DNA of 64,000 bases. It comes from a virus. Location of the stretch: positions 20,111 to 84,110 of IMG/VR virus record IMGVR_UViG_3300028844_006431. The stretch is one strand, 5' to 3'. Under the pieces are notes generated by a model that was given only the letters and a program-made list of their open reading frames with translations, was not told where the DNA came from and made no database searches. Positions 21,517-64,000 of this stretch are shown one piece after another; within the stretch, counting starts at the first letter, position 1; the number at the start of each line of letters is the position of its first letter. Made by a program: the position numbers and the translations under genes.

Positions 21517-21776
21517 ATGAACACTTTGTTCAGAATGGAAACATTCGAACAATTGAAAATGATCCAAGCCATTTCATTTGGCATCAAGATGAATTTGACC
21601 GCATCATCTCTTTAATTTCAGGCGACAAATGGTTTCTACAAATGGAACATCAGTTGCCTGAAAAAATAGAGAAAAACAAAAACATGTATATACAAAAAGA
21701 AGTCTGGCATCGTGTGTTCTGTACAAATACGAATGCTGAGAATCATCTAATCATTTCAATACAAGACATTCAATGA
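21510..21776 (+). CDS. Small conserved protein, possibly cupin-like, 88 aa
   Basis: The frame after the previous gene reads VNEHFVQNGNIRTIENDPSH and then GDKWFLQMEHQLPEKIEKNK and EVWHRVFCTN. Short beta-strand spacing and the late histidine (VWHRVF) resemble a minimal cupin barrel, a weak inference. The start is uncertain: a TTG at 21510 follows AGGAGG (21501-21506) closely, while an upstream in-frame ATG at 21444 would overlap the previous gene by 73 bases. Its TGA overlaps the next ATG (ATGA at 21773). Confidence 0.55.
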   Translation: MVNEHFVQNGNIRTIENDPSHFIWHQDEFDRIISLISGDKWFLQMEHQLPEKIEKNKNMYIQKEVWHRVFCTNTNAENHLIISIQDIQ

Positions 21777-22852
21777 AATCTTTTAAAGAATTACACGAAG
21801 AATATCTCGAGGAAAAAAAATATCCTAAACTGAAACAACGCAAAGATGTTAGTTCAAAAACTAAAAGCGGTAAAGATAAGTCAACACCTGAAAAAAATTA
21901 TCATGGTTTGAGCAAAGGTACCGCACAGGAAAGAGAGGATCATTGGAAGAAGCAGAGAGAAAAACATCATAGTGACTCTTCAGCTTACACACCCGCACCT
22001 GGTGATAAAAACGCCAAGACAAAGCCTTCCAAATATACAAAGGCCTATCATAAAAAATATGGTGACCCTTCAAAGGAAAAGAAGAAGGTCAGCGAAGATG
22101 TTGAAGGAGTGAACATACCATCCGAAACTTCAAAAGAAATTGAAAGACTTTCTAAATCATATAATGTAGAAGTATCTGAAATTGTAAAGCTTTATCGTAA
22201 ACTTTACGAAAGATATCGAATTATGATGAGAACTGGTAACAACGCAAGTGTTCCGAATGAAAAAGAAGCAAAGATTCTACAGGGTTCAACAATGTCGGCT
22301 ATGAAGAAAGCTTTAGAGAAAAAAGATGATGATGTAAATTCTGAAATAAAAAGAAGAAGAATGGGTGGTCAAGAACGACCTGTTCGAGAACCTCAGGATG
22401 ACCGTTTCGCTGAAATGAAAAGACGTTCACAAATGGAGTCAACTGAAAGTTCAATTAAAGAACGTGTTTTAAATGAATATTATGAAACTGTTTTTGAGGT
22501 AAATCCTGTTGAATTATATGGTGAATATTTGGAAGAAGGAAAAGCCGATACAGGATTAGCCGCTAAAGCCAAAAAAAGTGGCATATCTTTAAGTACGTTA
22601 AGAACTGTATATAATCGAGGGATGGCAGCATGGCGTGGTTCACATCGACCTGGAACTACACCTCAACAATCGGCGAATGCTAGGGTAAATTCCTATATTG
22701 CAAAAGGTAAAACTTGGCACACTGCCGATGCAGACTTACATGGCGGAAAAAAGAAAGATAATAAAACCAAGAAAAAGGGATCATCCACAAAACAATCAAC
22801 TAAACCACGTACTAAAACCGGAAGAGGTGGAAGGACTAAATTACATCCATGA
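21773..22852 (+). CDS. Lysine-rich tagged protein with a phage DUF5824-like C-terminal domain, 359 aa
   Basis: The N terminus MKSFKELHEEYLEE matches a T4-type capsid-targeting peptide, with an LEE cleavage-like site at residues 12-14. The middle is highly charged and Lys-rich. Residues about 262-325 (ADTGLAAKAKKSGISLSTLR; YNRGMAAWRGSHRPGTTPQQ; ANARVNSYIAKGKTWHTADA) match a domain common in phage proteins (I believe DUF5824), of unknown function. The C terminus is a basic tail. Coupled by ATGA overlaps on both sides. A DNA-condensing internal head protein is a reasonable inference. Confidence 0.75.
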   Translation: MKSFKELHEEYLEEKKYPKLKQRKDVSSKTKSGKDKSTPEKNYHGLSKGTAQEREDHWKKQREKHHSDSSAYTPAPGDKNAKTKPSKYTKAYHKKYGDPSKEKKKVSEDVEGVNIPSETSKEIERLSKSYNVEVSEIVKLYRKLYERYRIMMRTGNNASVPNEKEAKILQGSTMSAMKKALEKKDDDVNSEIKRRRMGGQERPVREPQDDRFAEMKRRSQMESTESSIKERVLNEYYETVFEVNPVELYGEYLEEGKADTGLAAKAKKSGISLSTLRTVYNRGMAAWRGSHRPGTTPQQSANARVNSYIAKGKTWHTADADLHGGKKKDNKTKKKGSSTKQSTKPRTKTGRGGRTKLHP

Positions 22853-23355
22853 AAACAAAATGTTGTGTGCCAACTGTAATACACCATATAAAACCACGTT
22901 ATATTGGTGGTACAGATGAGCCTGAAAATTTGATAGAACTAACATACAAAGAACATGCCACAGCACATTTTTTATTGTGGCTACAATACCATGATGAAAG
23001 AGATTGGTTAGCATGGCGAGGCTGCGAAGGACTTATCGGTAAAGAACAAATACATAAAGAGATATGTTCAATCGCTGGTAAGAAAAGTTACGCTGAAGGA
23101 AAAGGAATACACGATAAGACAAAAAAATCTGAATGGGCTAGAATGGGCGCAGCCGCAGCATATGCAAAACACAAAGAAAAGATAGATGCCCAGCTGAGAG
23201 AGAATGCCCGTAGAGGAGCAGAACTTGGACTTGGTGGGCATGAAGCAGGTAAATGGATTTGGATAACTAACGGACAAGAGAGTAAGAAAGTTTTGAAAGC
23301 AGAACAACTACCAGACGGATGGCGCAGAGGTCGTCATAGTCGAAAGGCAGCATGA
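22849..23355 (+). CDS. HNH-family endonuclease, probable homing type, 168 aa
   Basis: Residues 10-45 read VIHHIKPRYIGGTDEPENLI-ELTYKEHATAHFLLW. This is an HNH core with paired His (HHIKP), GG, Asn and downstream His residues (EHATAHF). The C-terminal GKWIWITNGQESKKVLKAEQ-LPDGWRRGR is the short DNA-binding tail often seen on phage HNH homing endonucleases. Its middle is helical and basic. ATGA overlaps join it to both neighbours (22849-22852 and 23352-23355), unusually tight for a mobile gene. Confidence 0.85.
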   Translation: MKTKCCVPTVIHHIKPRYIGGTDEPENLIELTYKEHATAHFLLWLQYHDERDWLAWRGCEGLIGKEQIHKEICSIAGKKSYAEGKGIHDKTKKSEWARMGAAAAYAKHKEKIDAQLRENARRGAELGLGGHEAGKWIWITNGQESKKVLKAEQLPDGWRRGRHSRKAA

Positions 23356-24563
23356 AAGCATTTAAACAATTCGTTATTGAAGAACAACTTTTAACTGAAG
23401 GTGGTAATTCACCTTTTATTAATCGTGAAACAGGACAAGTTCTAGGTCGTGCTGAACGTATGAACATGGCATCTGTAAATCGTAAACAGATTCAGGAGAA
23501 GTTGCTGACCATGCTTCAGGAACTTAACGTTAAATTCGGTAAAATGTTTGGCAAACCCTTATGGCCGTCTTGGTCAATTGTTGCGTCTGGTGAAGCTTTT
23601 AACGGTTCCAGTGAGCAATTTTTTGACAGCTCGATCTCTGATGCGGACTTCAAGAAATATAAGAAAACTGTTGGTGATATGGACCTGACAATCCCTCATG
23701 GTAATCTTGGACCTTTGTTTGACTTACTTGCTACTCTCGAAAATAAAAAGCTTGCTGGAGGAACTTTTATCTACAAGGGACAGAATAAAAAGAAACAGCA
23801 GGGACATCAAATCAATTCAATCTTTCAATTACAAAATCCAAAACTCAATCTTCAAATTGATTTTGAAGGTGTGAACTACGAGAAAGATAAACCAGACGCC
23901 TTTGGTAAGTTTTCACATAGTTCAAACTGGGAAGATATGAAAGCAGGTCTGAAAGGTCTGGGTCATAAACTTTTACTGATGAACATGGCAAGAGCCTTAT
24001 CCGCAATGCATAATGTAGTTGTGCTGACACCTTCCTCAACTGCTGAAAACCCTAAAGTTTCGGAAGCAGAAACAGAAAAGTTTCCCACGAACTTAGCATT
24101 CTCTGTTGATAGTGGCGCTCGTTTTAAATACGAGCCAGTGATGAAAGGTGAAACGCAATTAGAGATCAATGGTAAAAAGGCTTACAAGAAACTTCCGACA
24201 AAGAATAGTAAATACACAACAAATCTAAAAGAAATTTTTTATATGATGTTTTCAAAGAAACCATCAGAAACGGATCTGATTAAGTTTCGAAGTTTTGTAG
24301 GTATTCTTTCATTGCTCAAAGAAAAGAAAATAAAAAAACAAGTAATTATAGACATCTTTGAAAACCTTCTTACAAAAAGTATGTTCTGTAAACATTGTCA
24401 GGGAACAGAAGTAAATAATCCAGATGGTGATCGAAATACAAAAATGATCATTGTCAATAAAATGGTATCAGAATTTTCGTATCTCAAGCCGATTCTGGAC
24501 AAAGCTCAACCGATGATTGAAAAGTATTATCAAAACTATAAAGAAGTAAAGGTAGATTCATGA
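23352..24563 (+). CDS. Pol-beta-type nucleotidyltransferase-like protein with capsid-targeting-like N terminus, 403 aa
   Basis: The N terminus MKAFKQFVIEEQLLTEGG has the targeting motif and IEE/LTE sites (residues 9-16). A nucleotidyltransferase pattern follows: FNGSSEQF (83-90) as the G-S loop, GDMDLTI with D109 and D111 as metal ligands, and LQIDFEG (168-173) as the third acidic strand. C-terminal CKHC is a possible metal site. The family transfers nucleotides to nucleic acids, proteins or small molecules; the substrate is unknown. It lies directly before an RNA ligase fusion, suggesting shared RNA or nucleotide chemistry. The motif-based call is moderate. Confidence 0.6.
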   Translation: MKAFKQFVIEEQLLTEGGNSPFINRETGQVLGRAERMNMASVNRKQIQEKLLTMLQELNVKFGKMFGKPLWPSWSIVASGEAFNGSSEQFFDSSISDADFKKYKKTVGDMDLTIPHGNLGPLFDLLATLENKKLAGGTFIYKGQNKKKQQGHQINSIFQLQNPKLNLQIDFEGVNYEKDKPDAFGKFSHSSNWEDMKAGLKGLGHKLLLMNMARALSAMHNVVVLTPSSTAENPKVSEAETEKFPTNLAFSVDSGARFKYEPVMKGETQLEINGKKAYKKLPTKNSKYTTNLKEIFYMMFSKKPSETDLIKFRSFVGILSLLKEKKIKKQVIIDIFENLLTKSMFCKHCQGTEVNNPDGDRNTKMIIVNKMVSEFSYLKPILDKAQPMIEKYYQNYKEVKVDS

Positions 24564-46750: not shown

Positions 46751-47332
46751 ATGTATTTTGTTGGACAACCAAAATTTAATTATGACCCTAAAAATCATGT
46801 AAAACGAGGTCAGAATTGGGATGATGCTACAAGTATGAATGAAGATTTAATTTCATACTGGAATGATACTGTACCAGAGGATGCTCTTGTATTTGTTCTT
46901 GGTGAATTTCAAGATTCAAAAAATCCAAACATGCCCGGTTATTCGTACAAGGATTTAGTCTCTCGTTTGAATGGAAGGCTCTGTCATGTCTATCATCGAA
47001 AAGATGCCGAGCGAGAACATTCTGAGTATACTGAGCTTTGTGTTCTTGACACAATGATTCAATATGACCGTAAAACAATTCATATAACTAATTTTTTAGA
47101 ACATATAAATAGAATAGAGTCAAATCTTGTAATTACCTCTTGTGGAAGATATCTCTTGAAAGAGAATAACAAGAGCATTCATTTTAGTATGCATGGCTCA
47201 ACAATTTTTCAAAATAATATCATCAATCCCATTTATAATGTAAATCTTGATGAATGGGATTATAAACCGGTCAGTATTTCTGAAATACTTTCCCGATACA
47301 GCCTTTATCTAAAGCACAATGAAGAGTTATAA
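46751..47332 (+). CDS. Metallophosphoesterase-like protein with lost catalytic residues, 193 aa
   Basis: The layout follows small phage calcineurin-type phosphoesterases: SMNEDLISYWNDTVPEDALVF, the LGEF strand, LNGRLCHVYHR, a C-terminal HGS, and the closing YNVNLDEWDYKPVSISEIL characteristic of the family. However, the metal-binding motifs are altered: the usual SDTHFGH is VGQPKFNY, GD is GE, GNHD is YHRKD, and HGH is HGS. It is therefore probably an inactive structural derivative. A GGAG ribosome site precedes ATG 46751. Confidence 0.6.
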   Translation: MYFVGQPKFNYDPKNHVKRGQNWDDATSMNEDLISYWNDTVPEDALVFVLGEFQDSKNPNMPGYSYKDLVSRLNGRLCHVYHRKDAEREHSEYTELCVLDTMIQYDRKTIHITNFLEHINRIESNLVITSCGRYLLKENNKSIHFSMHGSTIFQNNIINPIYNVNLDEWDYKPVSISEILSRYSLYLKHNEEL

Positions 47333-47936
47333 CCAATTTTTAATAGATCATTTTCTTTCTGAAAAAAAGAAAGAAAAGAAAGAAGATGATTTCGATCTTG
47401 AATCTCTTTTCGATGATGAGGAGGAAAATGAAGAAGAAGAGGACACTGAAAGTTCTTCTGAAGATTCTGATAAGGATATGGATTCAGAGGAAACTGAGGA
47501 GGATTCTTCGAGTGATAATGACACTGAAACTGATTCTATGGATACGGAAAACGATTCAGAAGGAGAAGGAGAAGAGTTAGAACCAGATGAAGATGACGAA
47601 AAGAAAAAAGATGATGATAAGCTTGACCCTGATGATGAAAAACAGGTAACTCGTTCGAAAGATGATATTGAAAAAAAGGCAATTAAAAATGTCACTAAAG
47701 ACACTGAAAACAATGACACGGATCAAGAAACAGATCCTGAAGATGTAGAAGATAAGATTGACGATGAGATTGAATATCTAGAGAAGGATAAAGAACGATC
47801 CGATAAACTTTCCTACAAAGATAAGAAAGAAGAAGAGGATCGTCAATCAAAAGAGAAAAAAGACAAGGAAGGAAATAAAACAAAAGTTGTCATCAATCCT
47901 AATATTACAGAACATATAAATCATTGGATAAGGTAA
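47319..47936 (+). CDS. Extremely acidic tagged protein, 205 aa
   Basis: The N terminus MKSYNQFLIDHFLSEKKK has the targeting-like motif and an LSE site (13-15). The rest is low-complexity Asp, Glu, Ser, Thr and Lys, with long acidic blocks from about residue 24 to 110 and mixed charge later. Such a protein is likely disordered. Packaged acidic proteins or a scaffold-like counter-ion role are possible. It overlaps the previous gene by 14 bases. The Ser-rich reading on the opposite strand is an artefact of this composition. Confidence 0.7.
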   Translation: MKSYNQFLIDHFLSEKKKEKKEDDFDLESLFDDEEENEEEEDTESSSEDSDKDMDSEETEEDSSSDNDTETDSMDTENDSEGEGEELEPDEDDEKKKDDDKLDPDDEKQVTRSKDDIEKKAIKNVTKDTENNDTDQETDPEDVEDKIDDEIEYLEKDKERSDKLSYKDKKEEEDRQSKEKKDKEGNKTKVVINPNITEHINHWIR

Positions 47937-56131: not shown

Positions 56132-57352
56132 ATGGAAGTAAAAATTTACAGCAAAACAGGTTGTAGCTATTGCGTGAAAGCAAAAGAATTTTTCAAGAAT
56201 CATCGCATCGACTTTGTAGAAATTCTGCTTGATGATTATCAAGAACGCATGGACTTTTATCAGAGAGTTTCAAATGGTGTTCAAGTGACTTCCGTGCCAC
56301 AGATTTTTATTGATGACAAGCACATCGGAGGATACACTAACCTGATCTCTCAGGAAGATTTGATTCTGAAAAAAAAGTTCGGTGGGCTAGAGGTCTCATC
56401 CGTGACTTACAAGCCCTTTCGATATGAGTGGGCTGTAGAGATGGCTCAGAATCATGAAAAGATTCATTGGATTCCAGAGGAGGTTTCTCTTGAAGATGAT
56501 GTTCATGATTGGAAATCAAAGAAACTCTCACAAGGTGAGAAAGATTTCATTCGTAGTGTATTGACATTGTTTGTTCAAAGTGATGTCAATGTAGGTGAAA
56601 ACTATATCAATTACTATCTAAAGATTTTTAAGAACAATGAAGTTCGCAAAATGCTGGCAAGCTTTGCTGCGAGAGAATTCATTCATCAGGAAGCCTATGC
56701 GTTGTTCAATGATACAATTGGATTTCCTGAAAGTGATTACAGCGCCTTCTTAGATATCGAACAAATGAGAGACAAGCATGACTTCATGCTTGACATTGAT
56801 ATTCATTCGAAAGAAGGAATTGGTTTATCAATTGCAAAGTCCGTCATCAACGAAGGTCTTGTATTGTTCAGTTCATTTGCCATGTTGTTGAATTTTCAAC
56901 GATTTGGTAAACTCAAAGGTTTTGGCAAAATCAACGAATGGTCTATTCGTGACGAAAATCTTCATGCTCATGGAATGGCAAAACTCTTTCGAACTTATTG
57001 TAATGAAAATCCACGAATTGTCAATGATGATTTCAAGAAAAAGATTTACAGTATGGTTCGCACCGCTGTGAAATTAGAGGATATCTTCATTGAAAGAGCC
57101 TTTGGCTTTTCTGAAATGGAAGGTTTGACACAAGAAGAAATGAAGATGTATATTCGTTACATGGCAGATCGACGTTTGATTCAGTTAGGAATGAAAGGTA
57201 ATTATAAGGTCAAAGAAAATCCATTATCTTGGCTTGACTTTATTCTCAACGCACCAGACCATACCAACTTTTTTGAGAATCGAGTTACAGAATATAGTGT
57301 TGGTGGTCTGACAGGCAAGTTCAATTATGACTTTATCGAAGAGGTCGCATGA
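56132..57352 (+). CDS. nrdB: Glutaredoxin fused to RNR small subunit NrdB, 406 aa
   Basis: Residues 1-80 are a glutaredoxin with C11-S-Y-C14 and the TSVPQIFIDDKHIGGYTN cis-Pro region. Residues about 85-406 are NrdB: REFIHQEAY provides E182, H185 and the tyrosyl-radical Y189, INEGLVLFSSF another Glu, and RDENLHAHGM the second Glu-His pair. The C terminus YSVGGLTGKFNYDF fits the NrdA-docking tail region. The fusion would deliver electrons in cis, keeping the phage RNR independent of host thioredoxin or glutaredoxin. The 14-base gap between AAAGG and ATG is long for a ribosome site. Confidence 0.93.
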   Translation: MEVKIYSKTGCSYCVKAKEFFKNHRIDFVEILLDDYQERMDFYQRVSNGVQVTSVPQIFIDDKHIGGYTNLISQEDLILKKKFGGLEVSSVTYKPFRYEWAVEMAQNHEKIHWIPEEVSLEDDVHDWKSKKLSQGEKDFIRSVLTLFVQSDVNVGENYINYYLKIFKNNEVRKMLASFAAREFIHQEAYALFNDTIGFPESDYSAFLDIEQMRDKHDFMLDIDIHSKEGIGLSIAKSVINEGLVLFSSFAMLLNFQRFGKLKGFGKINEWSIRDENLHAHGMAKLFRTYCNENPRIVNDDFKKKIYSMVRTAVKLEDIFIERAFGFSEMEGLTQEEMKMYIRYMADRRLIQLGMKGNYKVKENPLSWLDFILNAPDHTNFFENRVTEYSVGGLTGKFNYDFIEEVA

Positions 57353-59843: not shown

Positions 59844-60449
59844 TTATTTAACATAAATTGTATATTCAATTGGCTTCATCTCGTAAATTTTTGTATTATC
59901 TTTGATGTAGCCATACAAATCAGTTTTATAAACTAATGTAATATCTGAAGTATTATCTGGGTTTACATTGGCTTTCTCTAAAAACATATCACTCTTATTT
60001 ACAGTGTAGGCAAAAAAGCCTGTTGAAGTTGAAGTGAAGTTATCTAGAGAAGGTGTAACCCCTGTTTGATTCATGGTATAATCAGTTGAACCCATTACAT
60101 AAAATGTCAATGAAGGCATTGCGCCAAGTGCCCAGTTGACTGCGGTGACATTGGCAGATGCTTCATCAAACATCGCAATTTTGAAATCATCGTCAGTTGC
60201 TGGTTCGGTTGTGGTTGTCCCGCCAGAACTTGAACTGTCTGATGTTGACGACGTGTTCGTTGTGTTTGTGACTTCCGTCGTGGTTGTTGTGGTGATATTC
60301 GTGTAGTTATCAATCTTCTCTACAATCTCCGTGTAAGAATGATTGTCACGAATTTCTGTTGTTTCTTTCTCAGTTTCCTTTTCAGGCATCATGTCTCGAC
60401 ATCCAATCAAGGCAACCGTTGCCAATCCTAAAACCATAAGTTTAAACAT
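59844..60449 (-). CDS. Lipoprotein with coiled-coil stalk and Thr/Ser-rich linker, 201 aa
   Basis: MFKLMVLGLATVALIGCRDM contains a lipobox (LIGC, C17). A charged stalk (about 22-55) follows, then a Thr/Ser linker (NITTTTTTEVTNTTNTSSTS, about 51-80), then a C-terminal beta-like domain (about 85-201, FKIAMFDEASANVTAVNWAL; IKDNTKIYEMKPIEYTIYVK). This anchor-stalk-linker-domain layout suits a surface or periplasmic protein. It lies three bases downstream of a tagged virion-type protein. Unknown function. Confidence 0.75.
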   Translation of the reverse strand: MFKLMVLGLATVALIGCRDMMPEKETEKETTEIRDNHSYTEIVEKIDNYTNITTTTTTEVTNTTNTSSTSDSSSSGGTTTTEPATDDDFKIAMFDEASANVTAVNWALGAMPSLTFYVMGSTDYTMNQTGVTPSLDNFTSTSTGFFAYTVNKSDMFLEKANVNPDNTSDITLVYKTDLYGYIKDNTKIYEMKPIEYTIYVK

Positions 60450-60452
60450 ATG

Positions 60453-62339
60453 TTATCCTTCTTTGAGTGTTTTTTTCCAGCTATTTGTGTGATTCTGTCC
60501 CTCCCAATCAAGACCTCCAATGTACTTCAATAAAATCTTCTTGATCTTATCTCGACTTGGTCCCTCTTCAATAGCATTATCTTTTTGTAAAACCTTCACT
60601 ACTTTTTCACCAATCTCAAACTGAATTCTTTCATAAGATGCTTTGATTGGATAAGCTTGAGAATAGGGTGAGGGATTACCCACATCAGGTGTTGCTTCTC
60701 CGTACAGCCTTTCAAGACAATAAGCCAAATTCTTTTCGTCATTTTCTTGACTCAAATTTCTCTTGAGCATCCTGAGTACATGGGCATAAGGATGCCACTC
60801 CATGATCACCTTTTCGATTAGACCGTGATATTTTTTATCAAGCCGTTCATCCTCAATATAAACATATGTGGCGTCTGCGATTTTTGTTTTGATTGAAATC
60901 AAGACTTCTTTGTCTTGAAAACTTCTCTTAATAATATCTGCCCAAGACTGTTGAAGTTCTTTCGGTATGTCATGGTCAAATGATTCAAAGAAAGGATTGT
61001 TTTCAGCTTTGTCATCGAAGACATCCATATGACGAGCATCTTTTGTAAAAGCTTTTATAAAAACTTTCGCATTTGGTTTGAAATCAATAAGTGCCTTAAT
61101 CAGATCAGGTTTCTTCGCAACAATCTCTACCATTGTTTCGTTTCCGATCTTCAATCCTGTCTTGTGTAATTCTTGACGAATAACTTTTGGTGGCTTACGA
61201 ACGGCATTTACCATTGCTGCGAGAATTTCTTTTTGACTTACATCCACAAGATACTTCGCATTCTTAAAGGTATCCATCAGAATATCTCGTTGTATAACCG
61301 GCGGTAACTTTACTTTCATAGGATGTTTGCTCAAAAGATTTCCTGAATCACCCTTATAATTTGTCAGTAATACATCTTTGACGGCATCTCCTTTTACGCC
61401 AAGCTCTGCAAGCATGTGTTCAGTTACCTTGTCGCCACCAAGTTTGTTGATTTTACCTGTTGTGATTAACTTCTTTGCTTTACCTGACTCTGCCATTTCT
61501 TGTTTCAGCGGTCCGAAATTATAGTCTTTGTTCGGTATGGCATCAAGTGTTTTCCATCCGTAACGTGATTTACCCGTGAAGAACACACACTGAGTTCTTT
61601 CCGCAGGATGAATGATACCTTTGTTATCTGGATCACAAACTGAATCATAGAAGAATTTCTTACCAGCACCTCTTGTCCAAAGTAATGCCCAGAGAGTAGC
61701 CTTTGGTTCATATTTCTTGAATGTTTCATAAGATGCATTTCGTCCAGCAAGTGCTTCAACATTATTCCAATTCGATTCAGCATAAACAAATGAAATTACT
61801 CTTGTAATATTCCATAACATGCCCGCATAAGATTTCTCTCGAGCACCCTTTTGTGCTTGAGCAATTGCTGAAGAAATGATTCTTGGAAAGATTTTAGCAT
61901 CTTTGTTTGACCATTTCTTTTTCATCTGAATCAACACATCATGTGTCAAATCTTTGATATCTCGTTGATACTTAGCACCATCATAATCATCAGTCAAATT
62001 GAGATGTTTGCCTTTAGGCAATCGTTGAATGAGTCCAATCCAAGGCATGTCACCCGCAAAAGGCACATCAAATTCTTTTGCATCATCATCTGTTTCTTCA
62101 TAAGCATAAACAATCGGATAAGTATAAATGCCGTTTGGTGTGTTATATTTTGATTTCGTATTCAAACCAATCTGAACAGTTTCATCTGCTGTATCTGTAA
62201 AAGCATTTGCATTCTTGACAAAAGAAATGAACATGTCTCCTCGCTTACGATAAGGAGATAACTTCTTGACTGGATTCTCTTTTGGATTTTTCTCTGGATT
62301 TCTTCTTGCTTCAACAAGAAATTGATTGAATGATTTCAT
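60453..62339 (-). CDS. Large protein with capsid-targeting-like N terminus, 628 aa
   Basis: The N terminus MKSFNQFLVEARRNPEKN is close to T4 internal-protein targeting peptides (MKTYQEFI-A-E), with an LVE site (8-10). Residues 30-115 (SPYRKRGDMFISFVKNANAF; GLNTKSKYNTPNGIYTYPIV; PWIGLIQRL) form a conserved-looking section that I have seen in other phage proteins of unknown role. The rest is helical and Lys-rich. ATGA overlap with the upstream gene. Packaging into the head is inferred. Confidence 0.75.
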   Translation of the reverse strand: MKSFNQFLVEARRNPEKNPKENPVKKLSPYRKRGDMFISFVKNANAFTDTADETVQIGLNTKSKYNTPNGIYTYPIVYAYEETDDDAKEFDVPFAGDMPWIGLIQRLPKGKHLNLTDDYDGAKYQRDIKDLTHDVLIQMKKKWSNKDAKIFPRIISSAIAQAQKGAREKSYAGMLWNITRVISFVYAESNWNNVEALAGRNASYETFKKYEPKATLWALLWTRGAGKKFFYDSVCDPDNKGIIHPAERTQCVFFTGKSRYGWKTLDAIPNKDYNFGPLKQEMAESGKAKKLITTGKINKLGGDKVTEHMLAELGVKGDAVKDVLLTNYKGDSGNLLSKHPMKVKLPPVIQRDILMDTFKNAKYLVDVSQKEILAAMVNAVRKPPKVIRQELHKTGLKIGNETMVEIVAKKPDLIKALIDFKPNAKVFIKAFTKDARHMDVFDDKAENNPFFESFDHDIPKELQQSWADIIKRSFQDKEVLISIKTKIADATYVYIEDERLDKKYHGLIEKVIMEWHPYAHVLRMLKRNLSQENDEKNLAYCLERLYGEATPDVGNPSPYSQAYPIKASYERIQFEIGEKVVKVLQKDNAIEEGPSRDKIKKILLKYIGGLDWEGQNHTNSWKKTLKEG

Positions 62340-63442
62340 CCTTCTTTCTTTTGAATTTCTTTTAGATAATCTTTCAACACACTCTTACTCGCATCGAGTG
62401 TAGCATAACGCAAAACTTTAGTTGGAAAGTTGAATTGCTTACGATAGGCGTCAACATCTTCTCCCTTATTTAAAGCACTCGTAGCAATAAACGCATAAAC
62501 AATTTCAAAATTACCAACTACAATCTCATCGTAAGTGTCTTGTTTTGTTTTTGTTCGCATTCTTTTTGCTTGAACTTTAGGCCAAGATAAAATATATTCA
62601 GTGAAAGCCTTTTTCCATTCAGGCTTGCTAGCGATAATTCTTTCTGCTCCGATTACATACTTTCGTATATATTGTTGTTTGACTGAGCCAGGTATGTCAT
62701 ATGGACGAAGAGTTTCCCAGCGTTGTTCACCTTTAGTCTTAGGAGCAACTCGTTTATCTTCATATTCTTTTTTCAAAGTTTCAATCATATCTCTTTTCAT
62801 ATCAACTAATTCTTGTGTCATGTTTTCATAATTTTTGATGAGCGCCATGAACTTAGCATTACTTTCTTTATTCCAATTTCGTATACCGCTACGAAAAACG
62901 GTAGCTGGCCGAAGACCACCATTTGTTGTGATATCTAACAAACGTTTACCCTGTTTATCAACTTTACTCCATAAATCTTTTTGTAGACCAGCAACTGCTT
63001 GACCTTTGACAACCGCAATAATTCCACCATTACTGTCAGACCAGATTCCTGATGTCATATCACCATACGGATCAACTGTATAAGCTGAGATTTGTTTTGT
63101 TCTTTTTTTCTGAATCTTTACAAGATTTTTAAGACCTTGAGAACCTGTTGAGTGACAGGCGAGTAATTGTATCTCTCCCGAAACTCTCTCAATAAATCTT
63201 GAGTTGAGTGGTAACTGAAAGGATCGATCTGTTTGTTTTTGAAAAACATATTGATTTCGTTCTTTCTTAAACCCCTCAGACCTTATATCGTCTTCATCAT
63301 CTTCATCATAACTTTTACTTTCTTTACCATACATATCTGAAGTCATGAGTAAGTCAGCATCATAGAAGAGATGGTCAAACAATGACCTTTGCCATTGAAC
63401 TTGTTCAGATAAGAATTCTGTAAATTCAGTGTATGTTTTCAT
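62336..63442 (-). CDS. Tagged phage protein, possible enzyme domain, 368 aa
   Basis: The start is set at ATG 63442, which overlaps the upstream TGA (ATGA) and gives MKTYTEFTEFLSEQVQW, a targeting-like peptide with an LSE site (11-13). An upstream in-frame start would add five residues. Residues about 88-155 read QLLACHSTGSQGLKNLVKIQ-KKRTKQISAYT followed by GIWSDSNGGIIAVVKGQA. This block recurs in phage proteins and vaguely suggests a His-STS ADP-ribosyltransferase layout, a low-confidence idea. The rest is helical. Confidence 0.7.
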   Translation of the reverse strand: MKTYTEFTEFLSEQVQWQRSLFDHLFYDADLLMTSDMYGKESKSYDEDDEDDIRSEGFKKERNQYVFQKQTDRSFQLPLNSRFIERVSGEIQLLACHSTGSQGLKNLVKIQKKRTKQISAYTVDPYGDMTSGIWSDSNGGIIAVVKGQAVAGLQKDLWSKVDKQGKRLLDITTNGGLRPATVFRSGIRNWNKESNAKFMALIKNYENMTQELVDMKRDMIETLKKEYEDKRVAPKTKGEQRWETLRPYDIPGSVKQQYIRKYVIGAERIIASKPEWKKAFTEYILSWPKVQAKRMRTKTKQDTYDEIVVGNFEIVYAFIATSALNKGEDVDAYRKQFNFPTKVLRYATLDASKSVLKDYLKEIQKKEG

Positions 63443-64000
63443 GGTGCGAAACCCCACTCTGCTAAACTGTCACCTGAGGTGAAGATTTGACTTGCCTTAA
63501 CTTTCTTTGAGAGTATTCTATATTTATTTCTTAGATGATCTTTACCATGTTCTTTTGCATAGTTTCTCACAATTGTCACCCAATCACCAGGATTGATCTC
63601 TGAAATGTTTTCTACCTTCTTGTCACTCTTCTTCACCTTCTCTTCTTCATTCCCCAACCATTCATAATACTTTTTCTTACCCATTTTATGAAATTCAGAT
63701 TCAAATGCGGGATAGGGCTTGGCTCTCTTCAACCATAGTGCCTGAGCTTTCTGGAGGTCTGCCAGCAGGTCTTCTTTGGTCTGTTGATATGGAACAGCAC
63801 GATAGATGGTAATCAATTTATTTGGCTTATTTCGGTATCCGTTGACAATCAGAGCAGCATCTTTCTCATTCTGAGCATACTCATGCCAGCGGTCATAGTA
63901 GTCTTTAGGATATACTTCATTGTGTGTCATGTCATGAAGAGGTGCTCCTTCTTTGCCAGCAGATTGATGCTCACCTTTGTAGTCTTCTGAAATGTTTTTC
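63439..64000 (-). CDS. ADP-ribosyltransferase-like domain protein (5' end beyond window)
   Basis: The minus-strand frame is open to the right edge, so the N terminus is missing; an internal ATG at 63930 is probably not the start. The visible part begins KNISEDYKGEHQSAGKEGAP, then LHDMTHNEVYPKDYYDRWHE. LITIYRAVP (conserved Arg), INPGDWVTIVRNYAKEHGKD, YRILSKKVKASQIFTSGDSL and AEWGF (Glu) follow. This matches a domain common in phage virion and MuF-type proteins that I read as an R-S-E-like ADP-ribosyltransferase fold. The STS position is VT rather than STS. Head gene for two coupled tagged proteins. Confidence 0.65.
   Translation of the reverse strand, partial: KNISEDYKGEHQSAGKEGAPLHDMTHNEVYPKDYYDRWHEYAQNEKDAALIVNGYRNKPNKLITIYRAVPYQQTKEDLLADLQKAQALWLKRAKPYPAFESEFHKMGKKKYYEWLGNEEEKVKKSDKKVENISEINPGDWVTIVRNYAKEHGKDHLRNKYRILSKKVKASQIFTSGDSLAEWGFAP

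What the first reader, a model, noticed from the sequence alone, without database searches (positions are those of the whole stretch)
60453..64000. ADP-ribosyltransferase-like gene coupled to two tagged proteins
The right-edge protein shows YRAVP...GDWVT...LSKKV...EWGF, a domain I read as ADP-ribosyltransferase-like, joined by ATGA to two proteins with capsid-targeting-like N termini. T4 packages Alt, an ADP-ribosyltransferase; an unrelated tagged effector operon could be the equivalent here.
Basis: partly seen in the sequence, partly recalled or inferred. Interest (0 to 1): 0.75.

Follow-up and report, generated by a model that had tools for sequence, protein, structure and literature searches.

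The report
Capsid-tagged ADP-ribosyltransferase-like phage effector operon
A T4-like virus of bacteria encodes a predicted protein-modifying enzyme coupled to two proteins that carry an address tag for loading into the virus head, and relatives of the enzyme carry the same tag, so these proteins are probably packed in the virus particle and injected into the host, which is a known strategy carried out here by protein families not yet described.

Summary
Three minus-strand genes are joined by ATGA overlaps. The second and third products carry T4-type capsid-targeting leaders, beyond chance. The first gene runs off the end of the 84,110-base record, so its own N terminus cannot be read; relatives were used instead. 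Its 185-residue domain belongs to a large, unnamed phage family: no Pfam or NCBIfam match, PHROG label 'ParB C-terminal domain', at least 499 loci in viral contigs. AlphaFold models (pLDDT 93.4 and 92.3) and structural comparison support an ADP-ribosyltransferase-like (ART) fold (49 of 50 listed rows, best Z 6.2), with R, T/S and E on the expected strands in 58, 56 and 56 of 58 rows. No Foldseek match reached E 0.001. In relatives a short leader ending in [L/I/V/F/M]-x-[E/N] directly precedes the domain (31 of 32); several lie beside the gp23 capsid or gp21 protease gene. The third protein belongs to another unnamed tagged family. Best reading: a head-packaged, injected ART effector, unrelated by sequence to T4 Alt. 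Catalysis, packaging and target are untested.

The parts
63439..63999 (-). ART-like gene, 5' end cut by the end of the record (186 codons open); domain covers nearly all of it: R66 in strand 61-69, T141 in strand 139-141, E180 in strand 180-183 (185-residue numbering)
63439..63442 (-). ATGA overlap: stop of ART-like gene with start of second gene
62336..63442 (-). second gene, 368 aa, leader MKTYTEFTEFLSE|QVQ; relatives only in three viral contigs
62336..62339 (-). ATGA overlap: stop of second gene with start of third gene
60453..62339 (-). third gene, 628 aa, leader MKSFNQFLVE|ARRNP; member of a wide phage family with motif NTPxGIYxYP
59844..60449 (-). fourth gene, 201 aa, lipoprotein-like N terminus (MFKLMVLGLATVALIGC), 3 nt after the third gene; also present after the partner genes in L007 and L009

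Best explanation
The locus is part of a capsid-loaded effector set of a T4-like phage. Proteins carry a T4-type capsid-targeting leader of about 10 residues that brings them into the prohead core, where a gp21-type protease would cut after L/I-x-E. The mature proteins would then be injected with the DNA. The first gene's domain is an ART-fold enzyme of the R-[S/T]-E type that most likely uses NAD+ to ADP-ribosylate a host macromolecule early in infection. The two coupled proteins are co-delivered effectors of other, unnamed families. Shown: operon structure, leaders, their recurrence on the same domain in distant phages, predicted fold, conserved active-site-like residues, and linkage of some relatives to head genes. 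Inferred: late expression, packaging, cleavage, injection, catalysis and target. The leader of this particular ART-like gene is inferred from relatives.
For: Models with pLDDT 93.4 (185 aa) and 92.3 (130 aa, hairpin-free relative). In the second look with the hairpin-free model, 49 of the 50 listed rows are ART-fold entries (the exception is Tic22, 4e6z; the ART label of CNFy, TreTu/TreX, Tse6, RES and IcmQ is recalled), best Z 6.2, rmsd 3.0 over 72 residues, 402 chains aligned. With the window's own domain, the rows that are not confined to the helical hairpin (6yhk, 6yhl, 8tfz, 7kw8, 4y1w) are all ART-fold entries. R66 58/58, T/S141 56/58, E180 56/58. Leaders: 4 of 915 start codons against 0.03 by permutation; 31 of 32 short-leader relatives have [LIVFM]x[EN], 29 with E, permuted mean 14.2, maximum 22. 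T4 IPIII and IPI leaders match the same pattern. The gp21 L/I-x-E rule and CTS residues 4, 7, 8 and 10 are from passages of PMC9026906. Gp23 (PF07068) is over cut-off in 11 of 22 records with a short-leader domain and in 0 of 38 others. The domain gene is the next same-strand ORF after the gp23 ORF in L013 and L104, and about 1.6 kb before the gp21 ORF in L106 and L108. In L108 a tagged GNAT (PF13508, E 3.8e-9) with the same 11-residue leader precedes the tagged domain.
Against: No Foldseek PDB match at E 0.001 or better for either model; Z 6.2 is below the level the tool treats as safe. The closest structures are Tpt1/KptA, which use NAD+ for RNA clean-up, not protein modification. Two tagged relatives (L065, L070) have A instead of T/S at position 141, and two chromosomal ones (L037, L038) have Q instead of E. 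No gp21 or gp23 was found in the window's own record, although the record is partial. Many relatives sit in long proteins without a leader. In VH7D the gene lies between regA and the DNA polymerase gene, not among head genes. T4 late-promoter octamers were found upstream (300 nt) of only 3 of 25 genes checked. Relatives are phylogenetically linked, so the Fisher p of 2e-6 is too optimistic.
Confidence: 0.6

Rival explanations
1. The domain has the ART fold and is packaged, but it is not a macromolecule ADP-ribosyltransferase: it hydrolyses or phosphorolyses NAD+ or cleans RNA 2'-phosphates like Tpt1/KptA, for example to counter host NAD-based or tRNA-cleaving defence.
For: Tpt1/KptA entries are the best structural rows (rows 1-15); the domain has conserved H10 and H150 outside the R/T/E set.
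Against: Active-site pattern is R-[S/T]-E, whereas PMC9503650 (section 27 read) names the H-H-h clade as the one primarily in RNA repair; no RNA-repair neighbours seen in the operon.
Confidence: 0.2
2. The leaders are not capsid-targeting sequences; these are ordinary cytoplasmic proteins with short amphipathic N-terminal helices, made after infection.
For: VH7D gp301 lies among replication genes; no gp21 found in the window's record; no virion proteomics seen for any member.
Against: Close match to the T4 IPIII leader at the mapped residues; leaders recur on unrelated domains (ART-like, GNAT, the NTPxGIY family, a domain near DUF6934); short-leader versions go with gp23.
Confidence: 0.17
3. 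The domain is an inactive ART-like module with a structural or binding role in the prohead core.
For: Two tagged members lack the T/S; T4 IPIII has a role in head assembly (passage in PMC9026906).
Against: R is kept in all 58 rows of A2 and E in all but two chromosomal rows; polar residues typical of enzymes are among the most conserved positions.
Confidence: 0.1
4. The PHROG label is right and the domain is the C-terminal part of ParB, working in DNA segregation or binding.
For: phrog_2579 match, E 3.8e-27; a GRHR-motif region (ParB-like by recall, not confirmed by Pfam) precedes the domain in L007 and L008.
Against: I saw no such GRHR region in most relatives (read by eye); the matched profile region is 338-466 of 472 only; the fold resembles ARTs. 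The label probably spread from fusions.
Confidence: 0.04

Closest known systems
T4 Alt (head-packaged, injected mono-ADP-ribosyltransferase)
   Same: T4-like phage; ART fold of R-S-E type; short N-terminal propeptide removed by a prohead protease (T4 facts from PMC9026906 and PMC5512222 passages)
   Different: No profile similarity found to Alt (single-sequence test); domain is 130-185 aa against 682 aa; leader is of IPIII type; operon with other tagged proteins
T4 internal proteins IPI, IPII, IPIII with capsid-targeting sequence
   Same: Leader MK[ST][YF]xxF[IL]xE directly before the mature part
   Different: Cargo is an ART-like enzyme and other folds; packaging not shown
ARTs of phage polyvalent proteins (N4-like, Tox-ART-HYD2; ART-PolyVal)
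   Same: Same predicted use: packaged effectors; this domain also occurs inside very long phage proteins, and two relatives also carry a YHGT region read as ART-PolyVal by recall (L100, L110)
   Different: Active site R-[S/T]-E, not H-Y-D; no Pfam match
Tpt1/KptA RNA 2'-phosphotransferase
   Same: Best structural rows (Z up to 6.2)
   Different: Catalytic residues differ (H-H-h clade by PMC9503650); no sequence similarity found
Head-packaged ARTs surveyed in PMC9503650
   Same: General strategy already published: ARTs enriched in myoviruses and near head genes
   Different: The sections read (13, 27) name Alt/VIP2, Mod, N4-like, PART, ORF28 and p0068-like families; a term search of the main text found no 'ParB' and no 'capsid targeting'; figures and supplements not seen, so this domain may be listed there

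Membership tests
ART superfamily, R-S-E clade | ART fold | tested here: met
   Predicted only: models pLDDT 92-93; 49 of 50 listed rows ART-fold, best Z 6.2; Foldseek E not significant
ART superfamily, R-S-E clade | R in strand 1, S/T in strand 2, E in the last core strand | tested here: met
   58, 56 and 56 of 58 rows; strands 61-69, 139-141, 180-183
ART superfamily, R-S-E clade | NAD+-dependent reaction | not testable with these tools
   none
T4 Alt/VIP2 family | sequence homology to Alt | tested here: inconclusive
   hhalign of A2 with T4 Alt: E 0.77; PF03496 found nothing in the record, but that search rang in no control either
Polyvalent-protein ARTs (H-Y-[EDQ]) | H in strand 1, Y in strand 2, E/D/Q in strand 5 | tested here: not met
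   R in 58 of 58 rows in strand 1; T/S in 56 of 58 in strand 2
T4-type capsid-targeted internal proteins | 10-20 residue leader with L/I-x-E | tested here: met
   Second and third genes and relatives of the first; first gene itself cut off
T4-type capsid-targeted internal proteins | gp21-type prohead protease in the same phage | tested here: inconclusive
   Not found in the partial own record; over cut-off in 5 of 12 and 4 of 49 ART-bearing records
T4-type capsid-targeted internal proteins | presence in virion and cleavage | not testable with these tools
   none
ParB (PHROG label) | ParB N-terminal and DNA-binding regions | tested here: inconclusive
   Only profile positions 338-466 of 472 matched; no ParB Pfam match in any of 14 domain rows or in the L007 N part

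The most novel reading that the evidence does not exclude
The T4-type capsid-targeting leader works as a general plug-in address: phages of this group have put it in front of many unrelated mobile domains (this ART-like family, GNAT, the NTPxGIY family, a DUF6934-like domain, YHGT proteins), giving a swappable, head-delivered effector set comparable in logic to polymorphic toxins, with the present domain as a new ART family used across T4-like and other phages.
Probability: 0.45. Interest if true: 0.75.

Novelty: new variant of a known kind. Interest (0 to 1): 0.6.

Why it matters
Head-packaged ARTs are known from T4 Alt and were predicted to be common. Here a domain found in at least 499 viral loci, without a Pfam or NCBIfam model and labelled 'ParB C-terminal domain' in PHROGs, is a strong ART candidate and in T4-like phages sits directly behind a capsid-targeting leader. 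If right, it names the likely function of a large unknown phage family, and the leader can serve to find other injected effectors in phage genomes. A simple test (virion proteomics plus NAD labelling) would decide it.

Tried and rejected
Seeds from the 628-aa and 368-aa proteins found few or no relatives; a motif pattern was needed for the third gene. Pfam, NCBIfam and PDB sequence searches with the domain gave only chance matches. Homology of the two partner proteins to the ART-like domain: not found. T4 late-promoter octamer upstream of the genes: 3 of 25, not used. Near-identical contigs that would extend the 5' end of the first gene: only the L007, L008 and L009 contigs matched. Literature on 'ParB C-terminal domain' in phages: 0 papers; capsid targeting sequence with effector: 2 vaccine papers, listing only; other searches searches gave general T4 and ART papers (listings; passages or sections of four of them read: PMC5512222, PMC9026906, PMC5694885, PMC9503650, and passages of PMC7824862).

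Rows dropped before counts: A2 leaves out near-duplicates and L107 (split domain). The leader count leaves out open-ended and long ORFs and L001, L027-L029, L034-L039, keeps several near-identical rows, and its pattern can use the conserved E of the domain's own start. The patterns were set after the leaders had been seen. The gp23 table leaves out the window's own record and near-duplicate contigs.

Full report
What is there. The window ends where its record ends: it is G000:C1:20111-84110 of a virus record of 84,110 bases. Three genes on the minus strand are joined by two ATGA overlaps: an ART-like gene cut at its 5' end (63439-63999), a 368-aa gene (62336-63442) and a 628-aa gene (60453-62339), followed after 3 nt by a 201-aa lipoprotein-like gene. 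The phage is T4-like: PHROG matches include DNA polymerase, UvsX, DnaB-like helicase, primase, ribonucleotide reductase, baseplate hub with lysozyme, baseplate wedge and tail tube cap.

Leaders. T4 IPIII and IPI, read from NC_000866, start MKTYQEFIAEA and MKTFKEF. PMC9026906 (passages) says that the first ten residues of IPIII suffice for incorporation, that residues 4 and 7 matter for targeting and 8 and 10 for processing, and that gp21 cuts after L/I-x-E. In the record a pattern that fits both T4 leaders occurs at 4 of 915 start codons (window 23352, 47319, 62339, 63442), permuted mean 0.03, maximum 1. The 628-aa leader MKSFNQFLVE|A resembles the IPIII leader position by position.

The domain family. 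Scans found 16 relatives in the first viral scan, at least 499 with an alignment query, of which 80 were kept, 156 phage records and 11 loci in cellular genomes. Solo versions carry short leaders: MKSFNQFLKE, MKTYTEFLSE (Vibrio phage VH7D gp301), MKTFKQFITE, MKTFKQYFLE and others; long versions lie in large phage proteins. Of 32 short-leader ORFs examined, 31 have [LIVFM]x[EN] and 29 [LIVFM]xE (permuted mean 14.2, maximum 22 for the first). In L009 a tagged domain near DUF6934 (26.1 bits, cut-off 27) is fused in front of it; in L007 that domain is a separate tagged gene upstream.

Fold. AF2 on the window's domain with 57 relatives: pLDDT 93.4, pTM 0.80. A helical hairpin (about 70-130) filled the structural list; the rows not confined to it were CNFy, Tpt1 and Vis. 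A hairpin-free relative (L030) gave pLDDT 92.3, pTM 0.85, and in the second look 49 of 50 listed rows are ART-fold entries, best Z 6.2 (some labels by recall). Foldseek itself gave no significant PDB match; in BFVD 15 viral models matched at E 0.001 or better, among them a large polyvalent protein associated domain protein. R66, T/S141 and E180 lie on the strands where R-S-E ARTs have them.

Context in relatives. Gp23 matches at E 0.001 in 6 of 12 records and is over cut-off in 5 of 49; S77 protease is over cut-off in 5 of 12 and 4 of 49. Without the window's own record, gp23 is found in 11 of 22 short-leader records and 0 of 38 others (Fisher p 2e-6, relatedness not controlled, records are fragments). 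In L013 and L104 the domain gene is the next same-strand ORF after the gp23 ORF; in L106 and L108 it lies about 1.6 kb before the gp21 ORF; in L108 a GNAT with the same 11-residue leader precedes it; in L104 a second leader-bearing protein with YIYHGTG follows.

Partners. The 368-aa protein has relatives only in three contigs. The 628-aa protein shares a motif with proteins in viral contigs, 111 stretches by pattern; of 71 complete ORFs, 57 have a leader of the same kind (permuted mean 17.9, maximum 26). The 44 members scanned gave no convincing Pfam or PHROG match.

Reading. The most likely function is an injected, head-packaged ART effector delivered with other effectors. That head-packaged ARTs are common was already proposed (PMC9503650, sections 13 and 27 read; PMC5512222, passages), and T4 Alt is the proven case. 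New here, as far as the sources searched show, are the domain family's ART reading, its direct capsid-targeting leader and the tagged partner families. Nothing here shows packaging, activity or target.

Noticed in passing
window 61845-62294 (-); L121-L215: Third gene belongs to a wide phage family with motif NTPxGIYxYP and leaders ending in xE|[AK]R[RK]NP; no Pfam or PHROG family. Some loci carry two copies (L121, L123, L200).
   Followed up: partly
L104:3631-4389: Leader-bearing protein with YIYHGTG right after the tagged ART-like gene and gp23; could be a second, H-Y type ART (by recall), no Pfam match.
   Followed up: no
L108:2471-2974: GNAT (PF13508) with the same 11-residue leader as the adjacent ART-like gene.
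   Followed up: partly
L007:7683-7716: Tagged ORF ends ATGTGAGTG, where the ART-containing frame is open and could start at GTG; separate coupled start or a frameshift that would give a tagged fusion is unresolved.
   Followed up: no
window 21773-22852, 23352-24563, 47319-47936: Further proteins with leader-like N termini (MKSFKELHEEYLEE with DUF5824, MKAFKQFVIEE, MKSYNQFLIDHFLSE), candidate internal head proteins.
   Followed up: no
window 56132-57352: Apparent fusion of a glutaredoxin-like N terminus with a ribonucleotide reductase small-subunit-like protein (by reading of the sequence).
   Followed up: no
window 22849-23355: Homing-endonuclease-like gene (phrog_655, E 6.1e-14) between two proteins with leader-like N termini.
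   Followed up: no
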